DNA from: JBFLYE01 sp040756715 [NCBI: bacterium] | Lineage (GTDB): Bacteria > UBA9089 > UBA9088 | DNA: 15,371 bases | Direction of reading: 5' to 3' | Assembly: GCA_040756715.1 (NCBI GenBank) | Contig: JBFLYE010000019.1 | Location: 1 to 15,371, forward strand | In this document: in pieces, positions 17 through 15,371 of the stretch | How the letters are laid out: the number at the start of each line of letters is the position of its first letter | Numbering within the stretch: the stretch's first letter is position 1 | Made by a program: the position numbers and the translations under genes | Notes under the pieces: generated by a model | Told to the model about the DNA's origin: nothing | The model's input: only the letters and a program-made list of their open reading frames with translations | The model's database searches: none

Positions 17-52
17 TCAATTCAAAATTCAAAATTTAGAATTCAAAATTTC
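17..52. repeat. AT-word tandem repeat at the left edge
   Basis: The first 50 bases hold several close copies of the word TTCAAAAT, such as TTCAAAATTCAAAATTT and then ATTCAAAATTTC. The same word closes the right end of the window and recurs at 1118-1150. It runs straight into the inverted repeat that starts at 39. Nothing here looks coding. Confidence 0.75.
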
Positions 53-128
53 TTAAAAGGTGGATGAATTTTTAACAGATAAACACACCCTATCTATTTT
101 TGCACTAAGTAATGGAAGATACTATAAT
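39..128 (+). repeat. Left arm of a 90-bp inverted repeat
   Basis: Bases 39-128 match the reverse complement of 15281-15371 over the whole length. The only difference seen is one indel (CACACCC here, CACAACCC in the complement of the right arm). The arm begins GAATTCAAAATTT and ends GGAAGATACTATAAT. The inner edge coincides with the point where the DUF5618-like reading frame stops looking like its family, so the arm looks like inserted DNA. The arm also contains TTGCAC, 17 bases and TATAAT (100-128), a possible promoter firing inward. No transposase is visible, so the element type is unknown. Confidence 0.9.
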
Positions 129-1120: not shown

Positions 1121-1183
1121 TTCAAAATTCAACATTCAAAATTCATAATTTTATAAAGCCTTCCTAAATCCTAAATTTCTATA
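1118..1183. repeat. AT-word repeats at the 3' end of the FapA gene
   Basis: Two word types follow each other: ATTCAAAATTCAACATTCAAAATTC (plus strand, from 1120) and TCCTAAATCCTAAATTTCT (1163-1181). The second overlaps the FapA stop codon, which on the minus strand is read as ATTTAGGATTTAGG with TAG as the stop. No hairpin-type terminator was found. Confidence 0.7.
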
Positions 1184-4100
1184 ACAATCCTCCCATTTTT
1201 TAATCTAATGGTGCAATTTCTCTTTTCTTCTAAGACAAAAAAGCTTGATTTTAATATATCTATCTCTGTTCCTTCAGAGATTGTATTTTTGACCCTTACA
1301 AATGCACCTTCATTTTTTTCTTTTGTCTCTAAATCCCTAATCTTCTCTATAGCTTCAAAAAGAAGCTTCCTTTTTCTTTCTATTTCCTCTTTAAGCAATT
1401 CTTTTCTGTGGGATGATAAAAGATCAATATGCGCAATATCAAGCAATAATCTTTCGTATTCTACCTTCGCTTCTTTAAGCGATTTTGTAAGCTCTTCAAT
1501 TTGGAGTATTATTTCAGGCTCCCTTCCAAGATAAAGGGATGTTTTTCCTTTTATCTCGTCTGCCTCTATACTATTTTTTGCAAATATCCTTCCTCCCATG
1601 ATTTTCTTTGCCTTTATATTAAAAGTAAGGATATCAGAGTGAAGAATTGCCCCTTTTACCGCTACATCCTCACAAGAAATATAGGAGTTTTCAATAAAGC
1701 TTGCTGTAATTGTCTTTCCAGCCACATTTCCTTTTCTTATCCCTCCTTGCACCTCAATCTTTCCACCTGCCTTTATTATGCCACCATCTATTGCATCTTT
1801 TATAAAAACATCGGCCTCTGCGCTAACCACAAACCCAGGAAGCACAGAACCAGAAATAATAACGCTTCCTGAAAAATGGATATTGCCTGTTTGAAGGCAA
1901 ACATCGCCCCTTACCTCGTATAATGGCTCTAGATCAATCTTTTTCTCTTTAAATATTACCTTACCATCAATATCTGCTATAAGAAATAGCCCATCATCCG
2001 ATATTTTTGTATTCTTTCCAACTGGCAGAGGGATATCCTTGGGAGGAGGAGGAAGAATCTCCTCTCCGCTTATCTTTTTCCCTGGCTTTCCAGGGATAGG
2101 GGGATGCTTTACCACCAGAATATCTCCCTTTTTAACAGAGACAATAAGGGATGTTTCTTTAAAATCAACCCTTCCAGATACATCAGGAGAAAGAGAAATT
2201 CCCTCCTTTTCCTTTACCTTATATTCAAGTAAGGCATCCTTTCCCTGTATGGGAGGAATAGGAGAGGCAATAACAATAGGCTCTTTAAACCTTTCATTAA
2301 CCAATGCATCCTTTATTGCATTATGGTCTATTCCGGCGATTATCCCCTCATTGTTTATGAATTTCATAACCTCATCCATATCAATGAGCATACCACCTAT
2401 CATTGGTGGGTAAAAAATAGCCTCTGCTTTTTCATCCTCTGTTATTTTTATTTTAATAATCTTTGAAACATCAGAGAGATATTGCCTCTCTCCTATCTTT
2501 ATTGCCCTCTCTTTCCTCTCCTTTTTCTCCTCAATCTCCTTAAATAAATTACTTATTCCTACATAATCAATCCCTACAAAACCCTCTTTTTTAATTCCCT
2601 GCAAAACATCATTATGAACAACCCATCTTCCTTCACCATGGGGAGGATGGATTACAAGATATAGCCCATCTGCACGGTTATCAAAGCTAAACCTGGCATC
2701 CCTATCCTCTCCATATGTTGCATCCCAATCTTCACTCCAGGGACCAAACATCCCTGCGGGAAATATCCTTATTGTCTTATTTGGTTTTTCCTCAAGTAAG
2801 AGGGAAAATTCAGCCTTTTCCTCAGGGATTTTAAGAAAATGTGCTCCCCTTGCGATGGCATCAAGGAGGTTTTGATCTGTTATGACAATAGAAGCCGGTG
2901 GTTCAAACCTCATCTTTTTTGAAACAATCTCCTTTTTTGTCATCTCAATAGGAGAAGACTCGTAAGGGCTTTCTTTAATCTGGCCATCTTTGAGCTTAAA
3001 TGTAAGCCCAATCAATGGCTTTGTTATCCTTAAGGTTTTTATTCCTATTTTAATCTTTGAATTTGGAAATATTGTTCCCGAGATAGATACAATGCCTTTT
3101 TCACCTACCTCCACCTCTGTCTCTGTCATCTCTGAAGAACCCATCTCCTCTGTATCAACAAGCTCTTCGGCAAATATTTTAGCACCTTCAAATGTCTTTT
3201 TTCCTTTTGCAATAACCACAGGGAGGGTAAATATGGGTGGAGGAACCTCTCCCTTTGTCATAATTATCCCCCTTCTTCCCTGGATAAATACCCTTTTTGC
3301 CTTAACTATGCCATCCAGAAATATCCGAACAATGAGAATTCCATCTGTAGATATATTTGTCATTTCGCAGGATTCACAAACTATATCACCGCTTGCCTTA
3401 AGGAATACCTCCTCTTTCTTTTTCCCCACCACATTTTTATCAATATATATACTCCCGTTTGATGTAAGATTTGCTCCCATCTCAACCATCCCTTTCACTA
3501 CAATATCCCCCTTTGCAATAATATTTGTTCTCTTTTCTACATTACCTGAGATTATAACCTTTCCAGGAAAATCTACATCCTCTTTACAATCACCCTCTAT
3601 TCTTAAAACCTTTTCCACATCGCATCTATTTTCCTTCCAATGAGCCTCTCCCCTTTCATGGCTATATAGAATTCTTCCCTCGGCCGAAAGATAAGTACCT
3701 GCCCCAGGGATTATTTCAATATCGTCTCCTATAATTCCTTCTATTTCCTCTCCAAATATATCAATCCCTTTCTCTCCTATCTTTGAAGGCTCTTTTATAG
3801 CTAAAATTTGTCCCTCGATGACCTCAAGGCAATCCTCCCTTTTTATTTCTTTTCCCTCTACTATTCCAAATTGATAGATAAGGTAAGCATCTTTTCCTTT
3901 GCTTGGCATTTTTGCCTTTGCAAAGGGAATTTCTTTGTTGTATACAGGGTTTTTAAGAAGGCTTGCAATTGCATTTTTATCTATTCCAAATGTTATATTG
4001 TTTTTTTCAATCTCCCTCAAGACTATCCTTCCCCTTATTGGTTTTCCTAAATGTGGATGTGGAGGGGTTAAGCCTATATAAGCCTCTTTGTTTTCATTTG

Positions 4101-5691
4101 TTCTTATTACTACCTTTCCGTCAAGTTCGGGGATATATTGCCGAGGGCCTATTTTTACCGGCTTTGAAGACATTTCCTCAATTGTAATTTTTAAGGTATT
4201 TTCATTGTAATCATAAAATTCCTTTAGCTTTTCCTTTGCATCTTCTAATGTTACCGGATTTCCCCTCCTCCCGGGTGGCTTAATTACAACAAACAAGCCA
4301 TCCTCCTGGTTTAAAATTTCTATCTCTCCATCCCTTTCTTCTTCTTTTCTCCTTTCCTCTTTTTTCTCTTCCCTTATTTTCTCCCAAGCTCCCTTTCTTT
4401 GCCTTTCAAAACAGAGAAACCAATTTTTCAAGGGAATATAATCTATATCAGCTATTCCCAAAAGCCTTTTTCCCTCCTCAATGTTTTTGACAAGGATAGA
4501 TGGTTCTGATTCTGGCTTTCTTTGTTCATACTCCTTTGTTTTAAGCTTTACCTCTTTTTGTTGATATGGAAATTGAAGGATTCCTCCCCTTTCTTCCTTT
4601 AGGGTTAAAGATTCCATCGCCTTTTTTACCTCAAGGCTTGTTTTACCAATCGTAATCTTTGTTTTTGGATATATAGACATTGAGGAAACAAAACCCCCTT
4701 GGTCTACTATTATTTCTGTCTTTTCGTAAGAAACAGAGCCTATTGTTTCTGCGCTTACAGAGTTTTTCCCTTGAATTACCCCACCAATAATTCCTTGCAC
4801 CCCTTTTGCCATAGCAATGGGAAGGGAGAATATCTCAGAAGGTATGTCTTTGAATGTCATAATTATGGCCTTCCTTCCTATAACAACACAGTTTTCTGCC
4901 CTTGTATTTGAATGCAAAAGCCCTGTTTTCATAACAATAGAACCACCTGCCTCTATATCAGAGTAGCTTGCTGAATTTGCCAGGCAATCACATTCTGCTT
5001 TTATACTTACCCTTTTTTCTTCGCTTCCCATTATGTCTTTCTCTACCTCAATTGTTCCCCTTGAGACAATAGATACACCATTTTTTATCTCCCCTCCTAC
5101 CTTTATATCCTCTGCCTTAAGAGATACATCAGGAGATATATTGCCAGAGATAATTACCATTCCATCAAAGTCCACATCTTCAGCTAAATCACCATCTATC
5201 CTCAATACCTTTAAAACATCAGCCCTATTTTCCTTCCAAAATACCTTCCCTTTACCTGTTGAATATAAAATTTTTCCATCCTCTGAAAGGTATGTATTTT
5301 TCCCTGGAATTATCTGAAAATCATCTCCAGAAATGCCTGGAATTTCTTTACCAAAAACAGAAATCCCTGGCTCTCCTAATCTTGCCTCTTCTTTTATGGC
5401 AAGGATTTGTCCATCTATTACCTCTATTTCTTCTTCATATTTATAGATATACGAAGCATCTATCCCTTTTGTTGGCTTTTTTGCCTTTGCAACAACAATA
5501 ACTTTATTGTATTCCTTTTTTAAGATAGCAGAGTCTATTACCTTCTCATCTACTCCATAAATTATACCCTTTTCCTTTAATGTGCTAATGACATCCTCTC
5601 TCCTTGGAGGTTTCCCTTTTTCCTTTGGCGGAATCAATCTTATCTTTGCCTCTAATCCTTCCATTTTGGCAATTTTATCCAATTTAAGCAT
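1171..5691 (-). CDS. fapA: Giant triplicated FapA/DUF342 flagellar assembly protein
   Basis: FapA proteins are cytoplasmic beta-helix proteins linked to flagellar placement, and in Vibrio to polar targeting; the usual length is about 450-700 residues. This one is about 1500. Counting from a TTG at 5700, three units are visible. Each has the N-terminal module (YGVDEKVID at 49, FGIDKNAIA at 571, AGIDHNAIK at 1122), then KG-x-DA (79, 602, 1153), then a beta-helix start (VIISGN or VIISGS at 182, 715, 1280). Two further N-module copies lie between units (DGLFVVIKPP at 467, DGLYLVIHPP at 1011). Only unit 3 has the normal C-terminus: a coiled coil at about 1395-1465 and a final beta segment. A charged KEERRKEEE stretch lies near 446-456. 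ATG at 5691 is preferred to TTG at 5700; neither has a good ribosome-binding site. It is divergent from the gene at 5803. Confidence 0.88.
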   Translation of the reverse strand: MLKLDKIAKMEGLEAKIRLIPPKEKGKPPRREDVISTLKEKGIIYGVDEKVIDSAILKKEYNKVIVVAKAKKPTKGIDASYIYKYEEEIEVIDGQILAIKEEARLGEPGISVFGKEIPGISGDDFQIIPGKNTYLSEDGKILYSTGKGKVFWKENRADVLKVLRIDGDLAEDVDFDGMVIISGNISPDVSLKAEDIKVGGEIKNGVSIVSRGTIEVEKDIMGSEEKRVSIKAECDCLANSASYSDIEAGGSIVMKTGLLHSNTRAENCVVIGRKAIIMTFKDIPSEIFSLPIAMAKGVQGIIGGVIQGKNSVSAETIGSVSYEKTEIIVDQGGFVSSMSIYPKTKITIGKTSLEVKKAMESLTLKEERGGILQFPYQQKEVKLKTKEYEQRKPESEPSILVKNIEEGKRLLGIADIDYIPLKNWFLCFERQRKGAWEKIREEKKEERRKEEERDGEIEILNQEDGLFVVIKPPGRRGNPVTLEDAKEKLKEFYDYNENTLKITIEEMSSKPVKIGPRQYIPELDGKVVIRTNENKEAYIGLTPPHPHLGKPIRGRIVLREIEKNNITFGIDKNAIASLLKNPVYNKEIPFAKAKMPSKGKDAYLIYQFGIVEGKEIKREDCLEVIEGQILAIKEPSKIGEKGIDIFGEEIEGIIGDDIEIIPGAGTYLSAEGRILYSHERGEAHWKENRCDVEKVLRIEGDCKEDVDFPGKVIISGNVEKRTNIIAKGDIVVKGMVEMGANLTSNGSIYIDKNVVGKKKEEVFLKASGDIVCESCEMTNISTDGILIVRIFLDGIVKAKRVFIQGRRGIIMTKGEVPPPIFTLPVVIAKGKKTFEGAKIFAEELVDTEEMGSSEMTETEVEVGEKGIVSISGTIFPNSKIKIGIKTLRITKPLIGLTFKLKDGQIKESPYESSPIEMTKKEIVSKKMRFEPPASIVITDQNLLDAIARGAHFLKIPEEKAEFSLLLEEKPNKTIRIFPAGMFGPWSEDWDATYGEDRDARFSFDNRADGLYLVIHPPHGEGRWVVHNDVLQGIKKEGFVGIDYVGISNLFKEIEEKKERKERAIKIGERQYLSDVSKIIKIKITEDEKAEAIFYPPMIGGMLIDMDEVMKFINNEGIIAGIDHNAIKDALVNERFKEPIVIASPIPPIQGKDALLEYKVKEKEGISLSPDVSGRVDFKETSLIVSVKKGDILVVKHPPIPGKPGKKISGEEILPPPPKDIPLPVGKNTKISDDGLFLIADIDGKVIFKEKKIDLEPLYEVRGDVCLQTGNIHFSGSVIISGSVLPGFVVSAEADVFIKDAIDGGIIKAGGKIEVQGGIRKGNVAGKTITASFIENSYISCEDVAVKGAILHSDILTFNIKAKKIMGGRIFAKNSIEADEIKGKTSLYLGREPEIILQIEELTKSLKEAKVEYERLLLDIAHIDLLSSHRKELLKEEIERKRKLLFEAIEKIRDLETKEKNEGAFVRVKNTISEGTEIDILKSSFFVLEEKRNCTIRLKNGRIVIEI

Positions 5692-5745: not shown

Positions 5746-5802
5746 TAATTTTATAATTTCTCACGCTTAAGTTTAAAAGTGGGAGAAAAGGAGGTAAAGA
5801 AG

Positions 5803-6504
5803 ATGGAAAAGCTTCGAGAGATGTATGAGAGATTGAGGGAAGGGAAAGGGTATTCTATAAAAAAGGTGGCTTCTGATTTGAAGATTAACGAACTCACATT
5901 TAAAAGCTACCTTTATAAAGGGGGAAAGTCAAGGAATCCAAAGATATGGAAAAGGATGATGAGCTATTTTGAAAAAGAGCTCGCATCCTGTCCAGAAAAA
6001 ACCATTCCTGAAAAGAAAGAGCTAACAGGAATAAGGAAAGGCCTTAGAGACCTTCTTCTTGAGGTGGGAAAGGGTGATCTGGTTGGGGCGGTTAGAAATA
6101 TAAAAAGGGATTTAAACCTTCCCAATTCAAGCTTTAATAACTGGTATTGGCAAGGTATAAAGCCAAAGCAGGGCAACCTAAAGAGGCTTACAGACTACTT
6201 CACAAAGAAGCTTCAAAGGCCTATTACCCCTGAATGTGTTCTTGGAGAGGAAATAAAAAAGGAAGAAAAGCCCAAATTAGTAGAGGAAAAACCAAAAGAG
6301 AAACCAAAACCAATAGAGGAAAAACCAAAAGAGAAATTAAAGCCAGAGGATATAGAGAACTTAATAGAAGGGCTTAAATCCTTACAATCTGAGCTTAAAG
6401 AGAAAAAAGAAACCCCCCTTTCTGAGGAAGAGGAGGAATTGATTGCTAAATTTAGAAAGCTCTCTCCACCTGCAAAGCAAGGGCTTATGATGTTTTTAAA
6501 GTAG
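5803..6504 (+). CDS. Putative regulator with two HTH-like domains
   Basis: From the ATG at 5803 the protein has 233 residues. A GTG at 5779 is in frame, but AAGGAGG at 5788-5794 sits eight bases before 5803 and decides the start. Residues 17-60 (SIKKVASDLKINELTFKSYL and a following helix) and 90-136 (VRNIKRDLNLPNSSFNNWYW and a following helix) look like two copies of one helix-turn-helix-type unit. Residues 150-182 form a charged E/K/P linker with an 11-residue repeat. The C-terminus (LSEEEEELIAKFRKLSPPAK, 206-225) resembles the tail seen in some XRE-type repressors. A DNA-binding role is therefore likely but unproved. It is divergent from the giant FapA gene and its stop directly abuts the next frame, so control of the neighbours is plausible. 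No exact family is recognised. Confidence 0.75.
   Translation: MEKLREMYERLREGKGYSIKKVASDLKINELTFKSYLYKGGKSRNPKIWKRMMSYFEKELASCPEKTIPEKKELTGIRKGLRDLLLEVGKGDLVGAVRNIKRDLNLPNSSFNNWYWQGIKPKQGNLKRLTDYFTKKLQRPITPECVLGEEIKKEEKPKLVEEKPKEKPKPIEEKPKEKLKPEDIENLIEGLKSLQSELKEKKETPLSEEEEELIAKFRKLSPPAKQGLMMFLK
6280..6345 (+). repeat. Two-copy 33-bp in-frame tandem repeat
   Basis: Codons 160-170 and 171-181 of the HTH protein encode VEEKPKEKPKP and IEEKPKEKLKP. The DNA is nearly identical between copies (GAGGAAAAACCAAAAGAGAAA in both). It makes a charged linker and could change in copy number by slippage. Confidence 0.85.
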
Positions 6505-9593: not shown

Positions 9594-10472
9594 TTAGCCT
9601 TCCTCCTTGGCAAACTCCATATGCTCTGTTTTAAAGAGCCTTTTTAGGAAACTACTTATTCCTCCATTTTCAGGAAAGGGGATATTTGCCATTGCATTCC
9701 TTATGTTGTAAATACATTGGGTTGCCTTTGCCTTTGGATGGGTAAGAAAGAATGGAGATTGCTCCCTCACAGATTCCTCAACCGCCCTGTCATCAAGGAG
9801 AACACCGATTTTTTTAACCTGCATTCCCAAAAACTGACCTGCTATCTCCATTATCCTATTGGCTACCCTCTCTCCCTCCTCCAGTGTCTTTGCCCGATTG
9901 ACAATAAGCCTTATATCTAAGTCCTTTGTCCTGAAGGATACAGCCTTTATTATTCCATATGCATCTGCAATGGCAGTTGGTTCTGGTGTTGTAACAAGCA
10001 AGACCTTGTCTGCGGCAAGAACAAATGAAAGCACCCTTCCAGAAAGACCGGCTGAGGTATCAATAAAAATAAGGTCAGCGATACTAGACATGCCTGACAA
10101 TTGCTCAATTAACTCATCCCTTTTCTTGGGAGAAAGGTTCGCCAGGGTTGATATACCAATTGCCCCGGTTACTATCTTTATTCCACAAGGACCTTCTGCT
10201 ACAACCTCCTCAATTTTCTTCTCTCCTTTGATAACATGGAAAAGGTTATACCTTGGCGGTGGAACAACACCTGCTACAATATTTACATTGGAAAGCCCAA
10301 GGTCTGCGTCAATCACAAGAACCCTTCTTCCTGCCAGGGCAAATGATATTCCAAGATTAACCGAGATATTTGTCTTTCCCACACCGCCCTTTCCAGAGGT
10401 TACTGTTACTATCTCAACCGAATCCCTCTTTCTTTCCTTTACTAGCTCTCTTAATCTCTCCGCTTGATCCAT
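9594..10472 (-). CDS. flhG: FlhG, MinD-like ATPase controlling flagellar number
   Basis: This 292-residue protein is a MinD/ParA-type ATPase. It starts MDQAERLRELV, the D-Q-A-x-x-L-R motif by which FlhG stimulates the FlhF GTPase. The deviant Walker A is SGKGGVGKTN (26-35) with the signature Lys28. The switch I segment is DADLGLSNVNI (55-65), and Walker B/switch II lies in LIFIDTSAGLS near 133-144. The C-terminus SSFLKRLFK resembles the membrane-targeting amphipathic helix of MinD. It lies directly downstream of flhF, the usual order, so the two are co-expressed. The 24-base spacer is pure word repeat with no visible ribosome-binding site. All key residues look intact. Confidence 0.94.
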   Translation of the reverse strand: MDQAERLRELVKERKRDSVEIVTVTSGKGGVGKTNISVNLGISFALAGRRVLVIDADLGLSNVNIVAGVVPPPRYNLFHVIKGEKKIEEVVAEGPCGIKIVTGAIGISTLANLSPKKRDELIEQLSGMSSIADLIFIDTSAGLSGRVLSFVLAADKVLLVTTPEPTAIADAYGIIKAVSFRTKDLDIRLIVNRAKTLEEGERVANRIMEIAGQFLGMQVKKIGVLLDDRAVEESVREQSPFFLTHPKAKATQCIYNIRNAMANIPFPENGGISSFLKRLFKTEHMEFAKEEG

Positions 10473-10499
10473 TTTAAAAAATCTTAAATCTTAAATTCA
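10473..10499 (-). repeat. Word-repeat spacer between flhF and flhG
   Basis: On the coding strand the flhF stop is followed at once by ATTTAAGATTTAAGATTTTTT. The unit ATTTAAG is repeated beginning at the stop codon, and the spacer then ends at the flhG ATG. Confidence 0.7.
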
Positions 10500-11690
10500 T
10501 ATTGTTCCAAAGACCATTTTTGCAAGCTTTGTTGGATTTGCCTGCTCTATATCCTCAGGAACATTTTGTCCTGTGGTAATGTATATAATGGGCTGTTCTA
10601 TTTTAGAGCTCAATGAGAGAATTCCTCCAAAACAAACAGCCTCGTCTGTTTTTGTAAATATTACCTTATGGAATGATACCCTTTTAAAATTATCAGCAAT
10701 ATCAAGAAGCTCCTTATATTTTGTGGTTGAGGAAAGGATAAGGCAATTCTCTAAGTTATAGCCTGCTTGGGAGATAAATGCCTTAAGCTCTGCCATCTGA
10801 ATAGAATTTCTTTGACTTCTCCCTGCTGTATCAATAAGGATGAGGTCAGAGGAAGAATGGGTTTCTATTGCCTTCTTAAATTCTGATGGAAAATAAACAA
10901 CCTCAAGGGGAATACCCAATATGTCTGTATATGTCTTAAGTTGTTCAGCGGCTGCAATCCTATATGTATCAACGGTTATAACCGATACCTTCTTATGCTT
11001 TTCAAAGGCAAAGTCTGCGGCTATTTTTGCCAGGGTGGTTGTTTTTCCAACCCCGGTTGGACCAATCAATGTGATAATCTTTGGATTGCCATTATCAAGG
11101 CTTAGCTCTTCTGTTTTAATTATGCCTGCTATATATTTTAGAACCCTTGATTCAACAAATGCCTCATCTTCCAGTATATTTGGTGGTGCCTCAGCTACTA
11201 TCTGTTTAATTATTTTCTCGGCAACCTCCTTTTCAACATCATTGTTAATGAGCCTCATATATGCTTCCTGTGACTTTCCTGGAAATTTTATAATGCTTCT
11301 TTCCTCCATAATGGTGGTCATTTTCTGTTTTATCTCGGAAAGCTCCTTTTGAATCATTCCTATTATATCTGGCTGAATTTGGGGCTGTGGCTGGATATTC
11401 GGGTTTCGGGGTTCGGGAATGGGAATTTGGGGTTGATCACTTTCAACCTGTGGCTGGTAAGGAGGAGTTTGTGGCTGTAATGGTTGAACTTGGGGTTTTT
11501 CTGGCTTCGGTTTTGATGTAAAGGGAAGGGCTGCGGTTACTTCAATCATCTTCTTTCCAAAGATTCCAAATATGCCGCCCTTTCTAACATTTCTGTGGCT
11601 TACCAGAAGGGCATCCTTGCCCAGGTCAAGGGCCATTTGCAATAAAGCCCTCTGTAGGGTGGGAGCCACATATGTCTTATATTTCATCAT
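10497..11690 (-). CDS. flhF: FlhF, SRP-type GTPase for flagellar placement
   Basis: This 397-residue protein has the three FlhF parts. The basic N-terminal domain is at 1-55, including SHRNVRKGGIFGIFGKKMIEV. A proline/glutamine-rich linker spans about 58-108. The N and G domains follow from about 110. GTPase motifs are G1 GPTGVGKTTT (210-219), the insertion-box motif DTYRIAAAEQL (241-251), G3 DTAGR (287-291), G4 TKTD (346-349) and the final ITTGQ (371-375). FlhF dimerises on GTP, recruits early flagellar parts to the right place, and is switched off by FlhG, encoded next. The start is one of two adjacent ATGs (11685-11690) with AAAGGTAAG just before. The linker DNA carries CCCGAACCCCGAAACCCGAA words like those of non-coding repeats. 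Confidence 0.94.
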   Translation of the reverse strand: MMKYKTYVAPTLQRALLQMALDLGKDALLVSHRNVRKGGIFGIFGKKMIEVTAALPFTSKPKPEKPQVQPLQPQTPPYQPQVESDQPQIPIPEPRNPNIQPQPQIQPDIIGMIQKELSEIKQKMTTIMEERSIIKFPGKSQEAYMRLINNDVEKEVAEKIIKQIVAEAPPNILEDEAFVESRVLKYIAGIIKTEELSLDNGNPKIITLIGPTGVGKTTTLAKIAADFAFEKHKKVSVITVDTYRIAAAEQLKTYTDILGIPLEVVYFPSEFKKAIETHSSSDLILIDTAGRSQRNSIQMAELKAFISQAGYNLENCLILSSTTKYKELLDIADNFKRVSFHKVIFTKTDEAVCFGGILSLSSKIEQPIIYITTGQNVPEDIEQANPTKLAKMVFGTI

Positions 11691-11800
11691 CTTACCTTTA
11701 TTTTACCATTTAAAATTACAATTTGCAATTTGTATATGTTTATTTTTTTATTTTTCCCTTATAATAAAATCCTAAATCTTAAATTTCTAAATCCTAAATC
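11691..11800 (-). repeat. Word-repeat spacer between flhA and flhF
   Basis: From the flhA TGA the coding strand reads GATTTAGGATTTAG, then GATTTAGGATTTT, then further on CAAATTGCAAATTG. Two different word families are thus stacked in about 100 bases. Near the flhF end, TTGCAA, 17 bases and TAAAAT could act as an internal promoter; this is weak evidence. Confidence 0.65.
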
Positions 11801-13853
11801 ATATACTCACCATCCCAATTGAGGTAACCTTAACCCCAACCTCTATCTCATCATAAGAAAGCACAGAAATAAATGGAATATATGGTGCTATAATATTCCT
11901 AAAGCATCTTCTTATCCTTGACGATGTAAGGAGGACAGGCTGATATGCACCCTCTTTACCTATTGCCTCTTGAATGGATTTTAATAGAGCATTTGTCTCT
12001 TGTGGTGAAAGATTAGCCTTCTCTCCATCCTCTGTTTTTATAATGGATGCAGCTATTCTCTCCTCAAGTTTTGGCTCAATTGTAATCACCAAAAGCCTTC
12101 CATCTGGTGTCTGGTGCTGATGGGTTATCTGCCTTGAAAGAGCTTGCCTTGTCTTCTCTGTAAGAAAGCCGATATCCTTTGTCTTACCTGCCCAATCAGC
12201 CAATGTCTCAAGGATGGTTACCATATCCCTTATTCCTACCCTCTCAGAAAGGAGGCTATGCAAAACCTTTTGAAGCTCACCAAGGCTTAATGGCTCTGGA
12301 ATAAGCTCATCTACCAGGCTTGGGTATTTCTCCTTTACATTATCCACCAGGCTCTTTACCTCCTGCCTTCCAAGCAGGGTTGTGGAATGCCTTCTTATCA
12401 TCTCAGTTAAATGTGTAGCCATAACCGAGGCAGGGTCAACAATGGTAAAACCCTGCTCTTCAGCAAGCTCTTTATTTTCTCCCTTTATCCATTTGCAGGG
12501 CATACCAAAGGTTGGCTCAAATCCTTCCTCTCCTTCTATTTTACTCATATCCCTATCTCCCATAATAAGGAAGTGTTCTGGCTTAAGAGAGCCCCTTCCT
12601 ACCTCTGTTCCCCTTATTTTAATAATGTATTCATTCTTTGGAATTTGGATATTATCCCTAATCCTTATAGGAGGAACAACAATTCCAAGCTCCAATGCAG
12701 CCTGCCTCCTGATCATGGTTATCCTATCCAGAAAATCGCCTCCCGCTTCAGGGTCAACAAAGGGAATTAAGCTATAGCCTATCTCAAGCTCCATTGGATC
12801 AACCAAAAGAAGCGATGTAACCGCCTCTGGCTTTTTCACCTTCTCAAGCTCTTGCTTTTTCTTTTGCAATTCCTCCTCCTTTTTCTTTTTTACCTCCTTT
12901 CTTGTCATTATATACCCTAATAAGGCACAAAAGCAAGCAAGGGTAAGGAGAGGAATCCTTGGAAGGGGTGTAAAGGAGAGAAGGAATAATGCACCCCCGG
13001 TAATCCACAAAGCCTGCCTCTGGGATGTAATCTGCCTTATTACATCAGAGCCAAGTGAGAATTCAGATGATGTTCTTGAGACAAGGATGCCTGTAGCGGT
13101 TGAGATAAGAAATGCAGGGATTTGGGCAGAAAGCCCACAGCCAATGGTATATGTGGTATATGCTTTAACCGCATCACCTAAAGGCTCATGCCTTACAATA
13201 ACGCCAATTATCAACCCGCCGATGATGTTTATTATTATAATTACAATAGCGGCGATAACATCGCCCTGGACAAATTTTGCCGCACCATCCATCGCACCAT
13301 AGAAATCTGCCTCCTTTCTTATCTCCTGCCTCCTCTTTATTGCCTCATCCTCTGTAATGTATCCTGCATTTAAGTCTGCATCTATTGCCATCTGCTTTCC
13401 TGGCATAGAATCCAGGGTGAACCTTGCGGCAACCTCAGAAACCCTGGTTGTTCCTCTTACAATAACAAGGAGCTGGACTACGGTAAGGATAGCAAATATA
13501 ATTATCCCAACAATGTAGTTTCCTCCCACCACGAATGAGCCAAATGCCTTTACTATGCCTATATCCCCACCTTGACCTAAAAGGATAAGCCTTGATGTTG
13601 AGACCTCAAGGGCAAGCCGATATATGGTTGCCATAAGAAGGAGGGATGGAAATACAGAAAAGTCTATTGCCTTTGCGATATACATTACCGTCAAGATAAC
13701 CATTATGGAAAGCATAATGTTTCCTGCAATTAGAATATCAATAAGCAATGGTGGAAGGGGGATAACCATCATCGCAATGATGCAAAGGATAAATACAGCA
13801 ACCAGCAAATCCATCCTCTGTGTCCAGTTGGTTTGACCTCCTATTTTTTCCAT
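11799..13853 (-). CDS. flhA: FlhA, flagellar type III export gate protein
   Basis: This 684-residue protein has normal FlhA length. About eight membrane helices fill residues 15-320. They are interrupted by the conserved cytoplasmic loop RVSEVAARFTLDSMPGKQMA and the continuing IDADLNAG (137-164), the family signature, which couples proton flow to export. A lysine-rich linker (about 318-342) leads to the cytoplasmic domain (about 345-684), which forms a nonameric ring and receives chaperone-substrate complexes. It follows flhB and precedes flhF, a standard order. No ribosome-binding site precedes the ATG at 13853. An AGGAGGT lies inside codons 4-6, but the next in-frame ATG (codon 14) is too far away, so the first ATG is kept. 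It appears intact. Confidence 0.96.
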   Translation of the reverse strand: MEKIGGQTNWTQRMDLLVAVFILCIIAMMVIPLPPLLIDILIAGNIMLSIMVILTVMYIAKAIDFSVFPSLLLMATIYRLALEVSTSRLILLGQGGDIGIVKAFGSFVVGGNYIVGIIIFAILTVVQLLVIVRGTTRVSEVAARFTLDSMPGKQMAIDADLNAGYITEDEAIKRRQEIRKEADFYGAMDGAAKFVQGDVIAAIVIIIINIIGGLIIGVIVRHEPLGDAVKAYTTYTIGCGLSAQIPAFLISTATGILVSRTSSEFSLGSDVIRQITSQRQALWITGGALFLLSFTPLPRIPLLTLACFCALLGYIMTRKEVKKKKEEELQKKKQELEKVKKPEAVTSLLLVDPMELEIGYSLIPFVDPEAGGDFLDRITMIRRQAALELGIVVPPIRIRDNIQIPKNEYIIKIRGTEVGRGSLKPEHFLIMGDRDMSKIEGEEGFEPTFGMPCKWIKGENKELAEEQGFTIVDPASVMATHLTEMIRRHSTTLLGRQEVKSLVDNVKEKYPSLVDELIPEPLSLGELQKVLHSLLSERVGIRDMVTILETLADWAGKTKDIGFLTEKTRQALSRQITHQHQTPDGRLLVITIEPKLEERIAASIIKTEDGEKANLSPQETNALLKSIQEAIGKEGAYQPVLLTSSRIRRCFRNIIAPYIPFISVLSYDEIEVGVKVTSIGMVSI

Positions 13854-13896: not shown

Positions 13897-14988
13897 TCAT
13901 TTCTTCTTCAGTTTCCAAACAAAGGCTAAGACCTCGGCTACTGCCTGGTAAAACTCTGCGCCCACCTCAGCTCCTATTTGAACAGCCCTATAAAGTGCCT
14001 CAGCCAATGGTTTATTCTCAACAATTGGGACATTATGTTCTTTTGCTATTGCTACAATCTTCTCTGCAATAAAGCTCTCACCTTTTGCAACAACCATTGG
14101 TGCGGACATAGAACTTGCATCATATCTAATGGCAATGGCAATATGGGTTGGGTTTGTTATTACCACATCAGCCTTCTTTACCTCCTCCATCATCCTCCTT
14201 GCTGCCATTTGCCTCTGACGCTCGCGAATTCTTGCCCTCACCAATGGGTCTCCCTCCATCTGTTTTATTTCATCCTTTAGCTCATACCTTGTCATTTTCA
14301 GCTGCCTTTTGTATTCATGCCTCTGATATAGGTAATCAAGAACAGCCATAATGGCAAGAAAGATTGCAGATTTTATCATAATCTCATAAGAGAGCCTGGT
14401 GATTAAGAAAAAGCTTGAGAATATCTCGCCTGACATAGTAAAAATTATCTCCTCATAATGGGAGCTTATTGTTTTCCAGGCAAAATATGAAATAACACAA
14501 ATCTTAAATATTGCCTTTGCATATTCAATGAGTGTCTTTGCAGAGGGAACAATCCTTTGCCATATCCTTCCAAGATTAATGCCTATCTTTGATAGATCAA
14601 AGGATAATGCTTGATAAGAAAAATAAAGCCCTGTTTGCAAAACTTCAGAAAAAATGGAGACAAAGAATGCACAAGCCATAATGGGAATTGTAATCTTTAA
14701 AAAGTCTACACCCATTCCAATAAAGAGCAAATAAAGCCTTTCTGGGTTAAGGTTGTCTGAATTTATTGTTGCAATTGAGGAATACAGAAATTGCAATAAT
14801 GATGAGAATATCCACAAGCCGATGAATAATAAAAGAATAGCTGTAGCAAGGGTTATAATGGTTGGAGAAAACTCGGCTGTCCTTGCAACCTGACCCCTCC
14901 TTCTTGCCCTTTCTAATCTTCGGTGTGTTGGCTCTTCTGTTCTGCCTTCATCCTCCGGGCTTGCAAATAGCTGAAGGTCTATATCCAT
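13897..14988 (-). CDS. flhB: FlhB, flagellar export switch protein
   Basis: This 363-residue protein has the FlhB layout. The N-terminus (DEGRTEEPTHRRLERARRRG, 13-32) is the family signature. Four membrane helices lie within about 43-220, and a cytoplasmic domain follows. That domain carries NPTH (279-282), the self-cleavage site between Asn and Pro by which FlhB switches export from rod/hook proteins to filament proteins. It is first in the operon, 28 bases downstream of a near-consensus -10. No strong ribosome-binding site precedes the ATG at 14988. All key residues are present. Confidence 0.96.
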   Translation of the reverse strand: MDIDLQLFASPEDEGRTEEPTHRRLERARRRGQVARTAEFSPTIITLATAILLLFIGLWIFSSLLQFLYSSIATINSDNLNPERLYLLFIGMGVDFLKITIPIMACAFFVSIFSEVLQTGLYFSYQALSFDLSKIGINLGRIWQRIVPSAKTLIEYAKAIFKICVISYFAWKTISSHYEEIIFTMSGEIFSSFFLITRLSYEIMIKSAIFLAIMAVLDYLYQRHEYKRQLKMTRYELKDEIKQMEGDPLVRARIRERQRQMAARRMMEEVKKADVVITNPTHIAIAIRYDASSMSAPMVVAKGESFIAEKIVAIAKEHNVPIVENKPLAEALYRAVQIGAEVGAEFYQAVAEVLAFVWKLKKK

Positions 14989-15280: not shown

Positions 15281-15282
15281 AT
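15253..15282 (+). promoter_or_regulatory. Possible outward promoter at the right inverted repeat
   Basis: TTGACG (15253-15258), an 18-base spacer and TAGAAT (15277-15282) point rightward into the inverted repeat and out of the window. Each box is one base from consensus. Confidence 0.4.
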
Positions 15283-15371
15283 TATAGTATCTTCCATTAC
15301 TTAGTGCAAAAATAGATAGGGTTGTGTTTATCTGTTAAAAATTCATCCACCTTTTAAGAAATTTTGAATTC
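15281..15371 (-). repeat. Right arm of the terminal inverted repeat
   Basis: The last 91 bases are the reverse complement of 39-128 apart from a single extra base. The window ends inside the TTTTGAATTC word that begins the left arm. Read inward (leftward), the arm offers TTGCAC, 17 bases and TATAAT, which could add to transcription of the flhB operon. Confidence 0.9.

What the first reader, a model, noticed from the sequence alone, without database searches (positions are those of the whole stretch)
1171..5691. FapA protein tripled to about 1500 residues
FapA usually has one N-terminal module, one beta-helix and one coiled coil. Here three FapA units follow each other and two extra N-module copies lie in the linkers, making five N modules and three beta-helices. 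Only the last unit keeps the coiled coil. The units are well diverged, so the triplication is old and has been kept, which suggests a real scaffold function.
Basis: partly seen in the sequence, partly recalled or inferred. Interest (0 to 1): 0.75.

Follow-up and report, generated by a model that had tools for sequence, protein, structure and literature searches.

The report
Giant three-unit FapA flagellar protein
A bacterium of a little-known phylum carries an intact, unusually long version of a flagellum-assembly protein, made of three copies joined end to end, and its relatives carry two to four copies, some of them in genomes where no gene for the usual flagellar filament protein was found.

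Summary
Window 1171-5691 (-) is one open 1506-aa frame with three FapA units; AlphaFold folds all three alike, and only the third has a helical hairpin. One point is wrong: the "two extra N modules" are the normal first N module of ordinary FapA (8 of 10 complete single-unit FapAs examined have two). The linkers also hold a Jag_N-like mini-domain. So this is a chain of whole FapA proteins whose first copy lost its front end. It is not unique: all 19 genomes of the phylum (Ca. Desantisbacteria) have multi-unit FapA, three of four order relatives have four-unit forms (2028-2093 aa), and the own genome has a second, 1618-aa three-unit paralog without hairpin. In one pairwise comparison all units show purifying selection. 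Unexpectedly, the 13 genomes with such a paralog show no flagellin-domain or FliD gene, keep motor and export genes, and 11 of 13 have a complete ~1500-aa FlgE; they are probably one clade, hence one event. Function is inferred: a multi-headed scaffold for flagellar placement. A MinC-like beta-helix binding FlhG is a weakly supported idea.

The parts
1171..5691 (-). Whole gene: three-unit FapA (type I), 1506 aa plus stop
   Evidence: open frame; Pfam FapA_N 7.9e-92, FapA 7.6e-79
5464..5652 (-). Unit 1, N module of second type (residues 14-76); first-type N module missing
5203..5493 (-). Unit 1, middle module M (residues 67-163)
4795..5220 (-). Unit 1, beta-helix core (residues 158-299), no coiled coil; closing strands run to about residue 375
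   Evidence: pLDDT mostly 87-95, apart from a loop at about residues 271-300
4333..4551 (-). Linker 1 (residues 381-453) with a mini-domain like Jag_N, degenerate
   Evidence: strand-helix-strand-strand-helix; linker profile; no Pfam hit of its own
4114..4332 (-).
3892..4101 (-). Unit 2, second-type N module (residues 531-600)
3604..3921 (-). Unit 2, middle module M (residues 591-696)
3196..3624 (-). Unit 2, beta-helix core (residues 690-832), no coiled coil
2701..2946 (-). Linker 2 (residues 916-997) with a mini-domain like Jag_N, degenerate
   Evidence: no Pfam hit of its own
2476..2700 (-).
2239..2454 (-). Unit 3, second-type N module (residues 1080-1151)
1915..2271 (-). Unit 3, middle module M (residues 1141-1259)
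1543..1938 (-). Unit 3, beta-helix core (residues 1252-1383)
1327..1518 (-). Unit 3, helical hairpin (coiled coil; helices at residues 1392-1420 and 1427-1455)
1174..1302 (-). Unit 3, closing strands (residues 1464-1506)
9594..10472 (-). FlhG-like MinD-family ATPase, proposed (not shown) partner
   Evidence: MinD families below their NCBIfam cut-offs; KGGVGKT motif read in the sequence; place next to flhF and flhA
10497..11690 (-). FlhF
   Evidence: TIGR03499 over cut-off
11799..13853 (-). FlhA
   Evidence: TIGR01398 over cut-off
13897..14988 (-). FlhB
   Evidence: TIGR00328 over cut-off

Best explanation
Shown: this is an intact giant relative of FapA (DUF342), a head-to-tail chain of three FapA units. 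The last unit is an ordinary full FapA with its helical hairpin. The two upstream units lack the hairpin, and the first also lacks the front end. It belongs to a phylum-wide set of multi-unit FapA proteins whose unit number changes, and in the one pairwise comparison made every unit shows purifying selection. Inferred: it is a cytoplasmic scaffold of flagellar placement and assembly, in which the last unit does the normal FapA job and the upstream beta-helices are additional binding heads on the same chain, so that one molecule gathers several partners at the flagellar base or pole. A further, weaker inference is that the beta-helix heads bind the MinD-like ATPase FlhG in the way the MinC beta-helix binds MinD.
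For: Domains. Structure. Jag_N-like linker: Pfam Jag_N at the front of two single-unit FapAs of other phyla (E 4.7e-14, 3.9e-12) and, below cut-off (16.6 bits against 25, E 0.011), in one of four linkers tested, the two window linkers giving no hit; a profile of 63 linkers finds the same two FapA front ends (E 2.9e-6 and 1.9e-4) in a search of only 7 sequences. Phylum-wide: multi-unit FapA in 19 of 19 genomes. Positional orthology of units. Selection. Flagellar genes in the same genomes: FlhA 18 of 19, FliF 18 of 19, MotB 17 of 19, rod/hook C-terminal domain 19 of 19. In Vibrio vulnificus FapA is recruited to the cell pole by HubP (passage in PMC12918733) and binds only dephosphorylated EIIAGlc (passage in PMC6877527); in Borrelia fapA is bb0267 and flhG bb0269, one gene apart (PMC11607428 passages). 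MinC link: weak MinC_C hit E 0.001, weak MinC hit 5.7e-4, MinC beta-helices 4v02, 1hf2 and 6riq at rmsd 1.9-2.2 A over 91-98 residues, Z 8.7-9.3, E. coli MinC C-domain 95 of 111 residues at 1.9 A, Z 8.9; MinC_N in 0 of 19 genomes.
Against: No experiment on any multi-unit FapA was found or done. In the window fapA is separated from the flagellar genes by an FtsX-like gene and three genes on the other strand, and none of the window's other genes had a BLAST neighbour (E 1e-6) among the flanking ORFs of the 29 other fapA loci clustered with it (flanks of a few kb, type II loci included). MinC matches do not stand above unrelated beta-helices in the same lists (Z up to 13.7 and 13.3), no Foldseek match reached E 0.001, and the MinC sequence hits are below curated cut-offs. 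Relative placement of the units is uncertain (pTM 0.45 and 0.50).
Confidence: 0.5

Rival explanations
1. The extra units are passive: tandem gene fusion and unequal recombination lengthened a tolerant protein, and selection now only preserves folding, with no added function (constructive neutral growth or a spacer).
For: Copy number of the first unit changes: units 1 and 2 of G002 are each other's nearest (100/99), units 1 and 2 of G003 and G004 form one group (100/99), and 3 against probably 4 units within one genus; the protein diverges faster than FlhA (68-81% against 97.5% aa identity between the same two genomes).
Against: Unit 2 has kept its position in all five genomes of the order; dN/dS of units 1 and 2 is not higher than that of the canonical unit 3; 19 of 19 genomes of the phylum have multi-unit forms.
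Confidence: 0.25
2. The giant FapA is a cytoplasmic scaffold not dedicated to flagella (polarity, cell shape or another machine), recruited from a flagellar family.
For: Variable neighbourhoods: an FtsW/RodA-family gene beside it in G002, ribosomal protein S2 and a spermidine synthase near it in one family; in two flagellin-bearing genomes it is the single-unit FapA, not the giant, that shares a contig with flhA (G005 C19, G010 C220).
Against: All 19 genomes with it have at least rod/hook genes. No single-unit FapA was found in the window genome (one search lists 6 FapA matches there, as many as the units of its two giants), so a giant would have to do the flagellar job or nothing does.
Confidence: 0.2
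3. Artefact: chimeric or collapsed assembly, or a fused pair of genes.
For: Draft assembly of 218 contigs; both ends of the contig carry an inverted repeat.
Against: One open frame with diverged units (27-42% identity); the same-genus genome matches residues 195-1505 at 75% in one piece (G001:C103); assemblies of three other species show colinear 4-unit genes.
Confidence: 0.02

Closest known systems
FapA / DUF342 (Pfam PF20250 FapA_N + PF03961 FapA), single-unit; most frames listed are about 400-740 aa
   Same: Same N modules, M module, beta-helix and, in unit 3, the helical hairpin before the closing strands
   Different: Three units in one chain; hairpin absent in units 1 and 2; first unit without the Jag_N-like domain and first N module
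Two-beta-helix FapA of other phyla (G036, G047; B-N-N-M-B, 1105-1201 aa; frames over 1100 aa also listed in G151, G194, G288)
   Same: Two FapA beta-helices in one ORF
   Different: Only a beta-helix is recognised in front of a full unit; among the listed matches outside the phylum no frame exceeds 1281 aa (list cut)
MinC C-terminal domain (binds MinD)
   Same: Beta-helix superposing at about 2 A over 91-98 residues; weak profile hits
   Different: No MinC_N, no confident match; other beta-helices score as high or higher

Membership tests
FapA (DUF342) | FapA_N region (Pfam PF20250) over the curated cut-off | tested here: met
   305.9 bits against 27, three stretches
FapA (DUF342) | FapA beta-solenoid (PF03961) over the cut-off | tested here: met
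   265.6 bits against 31; models
FapA (DUF342) | Helical hairpin near the end of the beta-helix | tested here: met
   Met in unit 3 only; absent in units 1 and 2
FapA (DUF342) | One unit per polypeptide (the usual form, not part of the family's definition) | tested here: not met
   Three units; hence a variant rather than an ordinary member
FapA (DUF342) | Place at the flagellated pole and role in flagellar assembly (reported in Vibrio) | not testable with these tools
   Passages seen in PMC12918733 and PMC6877527
MinC | MinC_N domain | tested here: not met
   Not among the hits in the protein (E up to 0.1); 0 of 19 genomes
MinC | MinC_C-like beta-helix | tested here: inconclusive
   Below cut-offs; Z 8.7-9.3 not above unrelated beta-helices
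MinC | Binding to a MinD-family ATPase | not testable with these tools
   FlhG-like gene present at 9594-10472

The most novel reading that the evidence does not exclude
A clade of Desantisbacteria runs a flagellin-free rotary appendage whose outer tube is built from a ~1500-aa hook protein, and its flagellar base is organised by a pair of giant multi-headed FapA scaffolds (this protein and the hairpin-less 1618-aa paralog), the second of which arose together with the loss of flagellin; the FapA beta-helices act as MinC-like heads for FlhG.
Probability: 0.15. Interest if true: 0.8.

Novelty: new variant of a known kind. Interest (0 to 1): 0.5.

Why it matters
FapA is widespread and poorly understood. 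Natural proteins with one to four units, with and without the hairpin, are a ready-made series for asking what each part does. The link to a clade without detectable flagellin that keeps motor, export gate, hook and FapA helps to separate a filament-related role of FapA from a basal-body or placement role: FapA persists, and has its longest forms, where no flagellin was found, which points to the latter.

Tried and rejected
Extra N modules: rejected, they are the normal first N module. Assembly artefact: rejected. Conserved neighbourhood with flhBAFG: not found in the relatives' flanks. Known structure of the family: no PDB sequence match at E up to 1 and no Foldseek match at E 0.001; MinC is only the best sensible lead. 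Type II FapA and missing flagellin as independent evidence: rejected, because on the FlhA tree 11 of the 12 flagellin-less rows are one clade (100/99); the twelfth, G018, is a long-branch outlier copy, and one clade for all 12 is not rejected (p-AU 0.163; G015 has no FlhA match and is not in that tree). Polyhook by loss of the hook ruler: not supported, a FliK-type Flg_hook match is found in 11 of 13 flagellin-less genomes, one of them below the cut-off. FlgL was not searched by a model of its own; its absence is inferred from the absence of both flagellin domains, which FlgL normally shares (recalled). Literature: searches showed no paper on multi-unit FapA or on flagellin loss in this phylum in the titles and abstract beginnings listed; most subscription papers are not held, so this is no proof of absence. 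The Vibrio FapA papers themselves were not seen, only passages citing them and their titles.

Caveats on counts: six of 97 units had no recognised M module and were left out of the unit tree. The open_frame_aa column of the genome search was wrong for G000:C218:3237-4745 (2665 given; the real ORF is 1618 aa and ends in TAA) and inflated by masked bases in G007, so lengths were taken from fetched DNA except those outside the phylum quoted. In one search at most 8 candidates per genome were scored and the match list was cut. ORF lengths use the first possible start codon. The neighbours of the C218 paralog were not scanned against any library.

Full report
What is there. The minus strand holds one ORF from ATG 5691 to the stop at 1171-1173, 1506 aa. 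Pfam finds only FapA_N and FapA above their cut-offs. Profiles that I built from the sequence set (N, M and B modules) give N-M-B-N-N-M-B-N-N-M-B followed by a coiled coil. Two AlphaFold models cover the protein with an overlap: residues 1-1080, mean pLDDT 83.8, and residues 440-1506, mean pLDDT 84.9. Each unit folds as an N-terminal alpha/beta part, the M part and a beta-helix. A helical hairpin (residues 1392-1420 and 1427-1455) is seen in unit 3 alone; the other two have a short, poorly predicted loop in the beta-helix. Relative placement of the units is not resolved (pTM 0.45 and 0.50).

Of 10 complete single-unit FapA proteins examined, inside and outside the phylum, 8 carry two N modules; L079 shows one and L078 reads M-N-M-B. 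Profiles of the first and second N modules of those 8 type the five modules of this protein as second, first, second, first, second. The linkers in front of the first-type modules hold a small conserved domain. In two single-unit FapAs of other phyla the same place is a Pfam Jag_N domain (E 4.7e-14 and 3.9e-12); one of four linkers tested gives a Jag_N hit below cut-off (E 0.011), the two window linkers none; a profile of 63 linkers finds those two front ends, in a search of 7 sequences. So the downstream units look like whole FapA proteins, front end included, and the first unit has lost its front end. A start with a single N module is shared by the type I proteins of the phylum whose start could be read; its type was printed for this protein and G002's only.

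How widespread. The protein was searched in its own genome and 60 others: all 19 genomes of the phylum match, and 10 of the other 42. Reading the fetched loci, all 19 genomes of the phylum have at least one FapA protein with two or more beta-helices. Three of the four order relatives have four-unit orthologs (2028, 2093, 2080 aa). The same-genus genome has its copy on two contig ends whose overlapping parts are only 79.5% identical in DNA, which fits four units. Outside the order, three units were seen only in G006, in a gene with one in-frame TAA. The other families have mostly two-unit forms; one genome has a 1775-aa protein with five N-M pairs in a row (L053). In 290 genomes, 85 have a FapA match over the cut-off; outside the phylum the longest frame in the cut list is 1281 aa.

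Name of the phylum. One of 12 contigs found by the named-genome scan is from Candidatus Desantisbacteria CG2_30_40_21 (L120; phylum name). The window genome itself is unnamed. Records labelled Nitrospira and Marinifilum have the contig lengths of G017:C41 and G013:C3 and are probably mislabelled bins; a twelfth, weak match (E 9e-6) is from a bin labelled Gemmatimonadetes; the other eight are labelled only 'bacterium'.

History. In a tree of 91 units the last units of the 20 type I proteins present in it group together (99/94). Upstream units, with the units of the second paralog, form another group of 58 (90/99). Unit 2 of this protein groups with unit 3 of the four-unit proteins (100/99), and unit 3 with their last unit (100/99). 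First units cluster by genome or family, which means repeated duplication, loss or gene conversion of the first unit. NG86 dN/dS against G001 is 0.21, 0.22 and 0.29 for units 1-3 and 0.16-0.17 for the linkers with their N module; FlhA gives 0.08.

The second paralog. The own genome has a 1618-aa protein on contig C218 (L004:3228-8081), N-M-B-N-N-M-B-N-N-M-B-N, without a final hairpin unit, ending in a first-type N module and a TAA stop. Genes of this kind (type II, ending in N modules) occur in 13 of 19 genomes: G000-G004, G009, G012-G018 (in G004 as two contig fragments).

Flagellin. Flagellin_N and Flagellin_C are each found in the same 6 of 19 genomes, and FliD_N in the same 6. The 13 genomes without them are exactly the 13 with type II FapA. 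In the 6, an intact type II gene was not found; G006 has the stop-interrupted gene mentioned above, whose open part also ends in N modules. The 13 keep MotB (13 of 13), FliF (13 of 13), FlhA (12 of 13) and mostly a FliK-type Flg_hook (11 of 13, one below cut-off). Their FlgE is very long: 1495-1522 aa in 11 of 13, a 1160-aa fragment at a contig end in G015, none found in G001; in flagellin-bearing genomes it is 575-1070 aa in the five that could be read. In the 1522-aa protein of the own genome NCBIfam's FlgE/F/G subfamily passes its cut-off and FlgE models match both ends below theirs, with about 1080 aa between. On the FlhA tree the flagellin-less genomes form one clade (100/99) apart from an outlier copy of G018. 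So these traits may have changed together once; the match of 13 to 13 is not independent evidence of a functional link. These are draft genomes, 78-100% complete.

How it may work. In Vibrio vulnificus FapA is recruited to the cell pole by HubP and binds dephosphorylated EIIAGlc (passages in PMC12918733 and PMC6877527). In Borrelia fapA (bb0267), flgV, flhG (bb0269) and flhB (bb0272) lie in one operon region (PMC11607428 passages). FapA remains, and has its longest forms, in genomes without detectable flagellin, which fits a role at the basal body or in placement more than in filament assembly. The beta-helix superposes on the MinC C-domain at about 2 A, weak MinC profile hits fall on the beta-helix of unit 2, MinC_N was found in none of the 19 genomes, and a MinD-like FlhG gene is in the window. 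I therefore propose that FapA beta-helices are MinC-like heads for FlhG and that the giant form is several heads on one chain. This step is an inference with little support: other beta-helices score as well or better.

Verdict. My odds: architecture about 0.95, scaffold role 0.5, FlhG-binding step about 0.2.

Noticed in passing
L123:1337-5902 and L124-L134 (FlgE); genomes G000-G004, G009, G012-G018: A probable clade of 13 genomes shows no flagellin-domain or FliD gene but keeps motor, export and rod genes, and 11 of 13 have a complete 1495-1522 aa hook-type protein FlgE. Possibly a flagellin-free flagellum.
   Followed up: partly
L004:3228-8081 (-): Second giant FapA paralog of the own genome, 1618 aa, three units without helical hairpin, ending in a first-type N module, complementary to the module missing at the start of the window protein; may reflect an old fission.
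   Followed up: partly
L127:2962-10794: In G009 the type II FapA gene lies next to and convergent with the giant flgE gene; in G012 and G013 the two were found on different contigs.
   Followed up: partly
L044:2944-7716 (-): A three-unit FapA homolog in another family is interrupted by a single in-frame TAA.
   Followed up: partly
L053:1052-6376 (-): A 1775-aa FapA with five N-M pairs in a row: a second way of lengthening the protein.
   Followed up: no
window 39-128 and 15281-15371: 91-bp inverted repeat, 98.9% identical, at both contig ends; perhaps a dispersed repeat that broke the assembly.
   Followed up: no
window 5779-6504 (+): 241-aa protein divergent from fapA, with one weak HTH hit (E 0.053); by eye two HTH-like halves and a K/E/P-rich stretch; no BLAST neighbour among the flanks compared.
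   Followed up: no
L159 (G018:C3): The FlhA copy of G018 on C3 is a long-branch outlier among its relatives, perhaps contamination or a second system; two further FlhA pieces of G018 were listed and not used.
   Followed up: no
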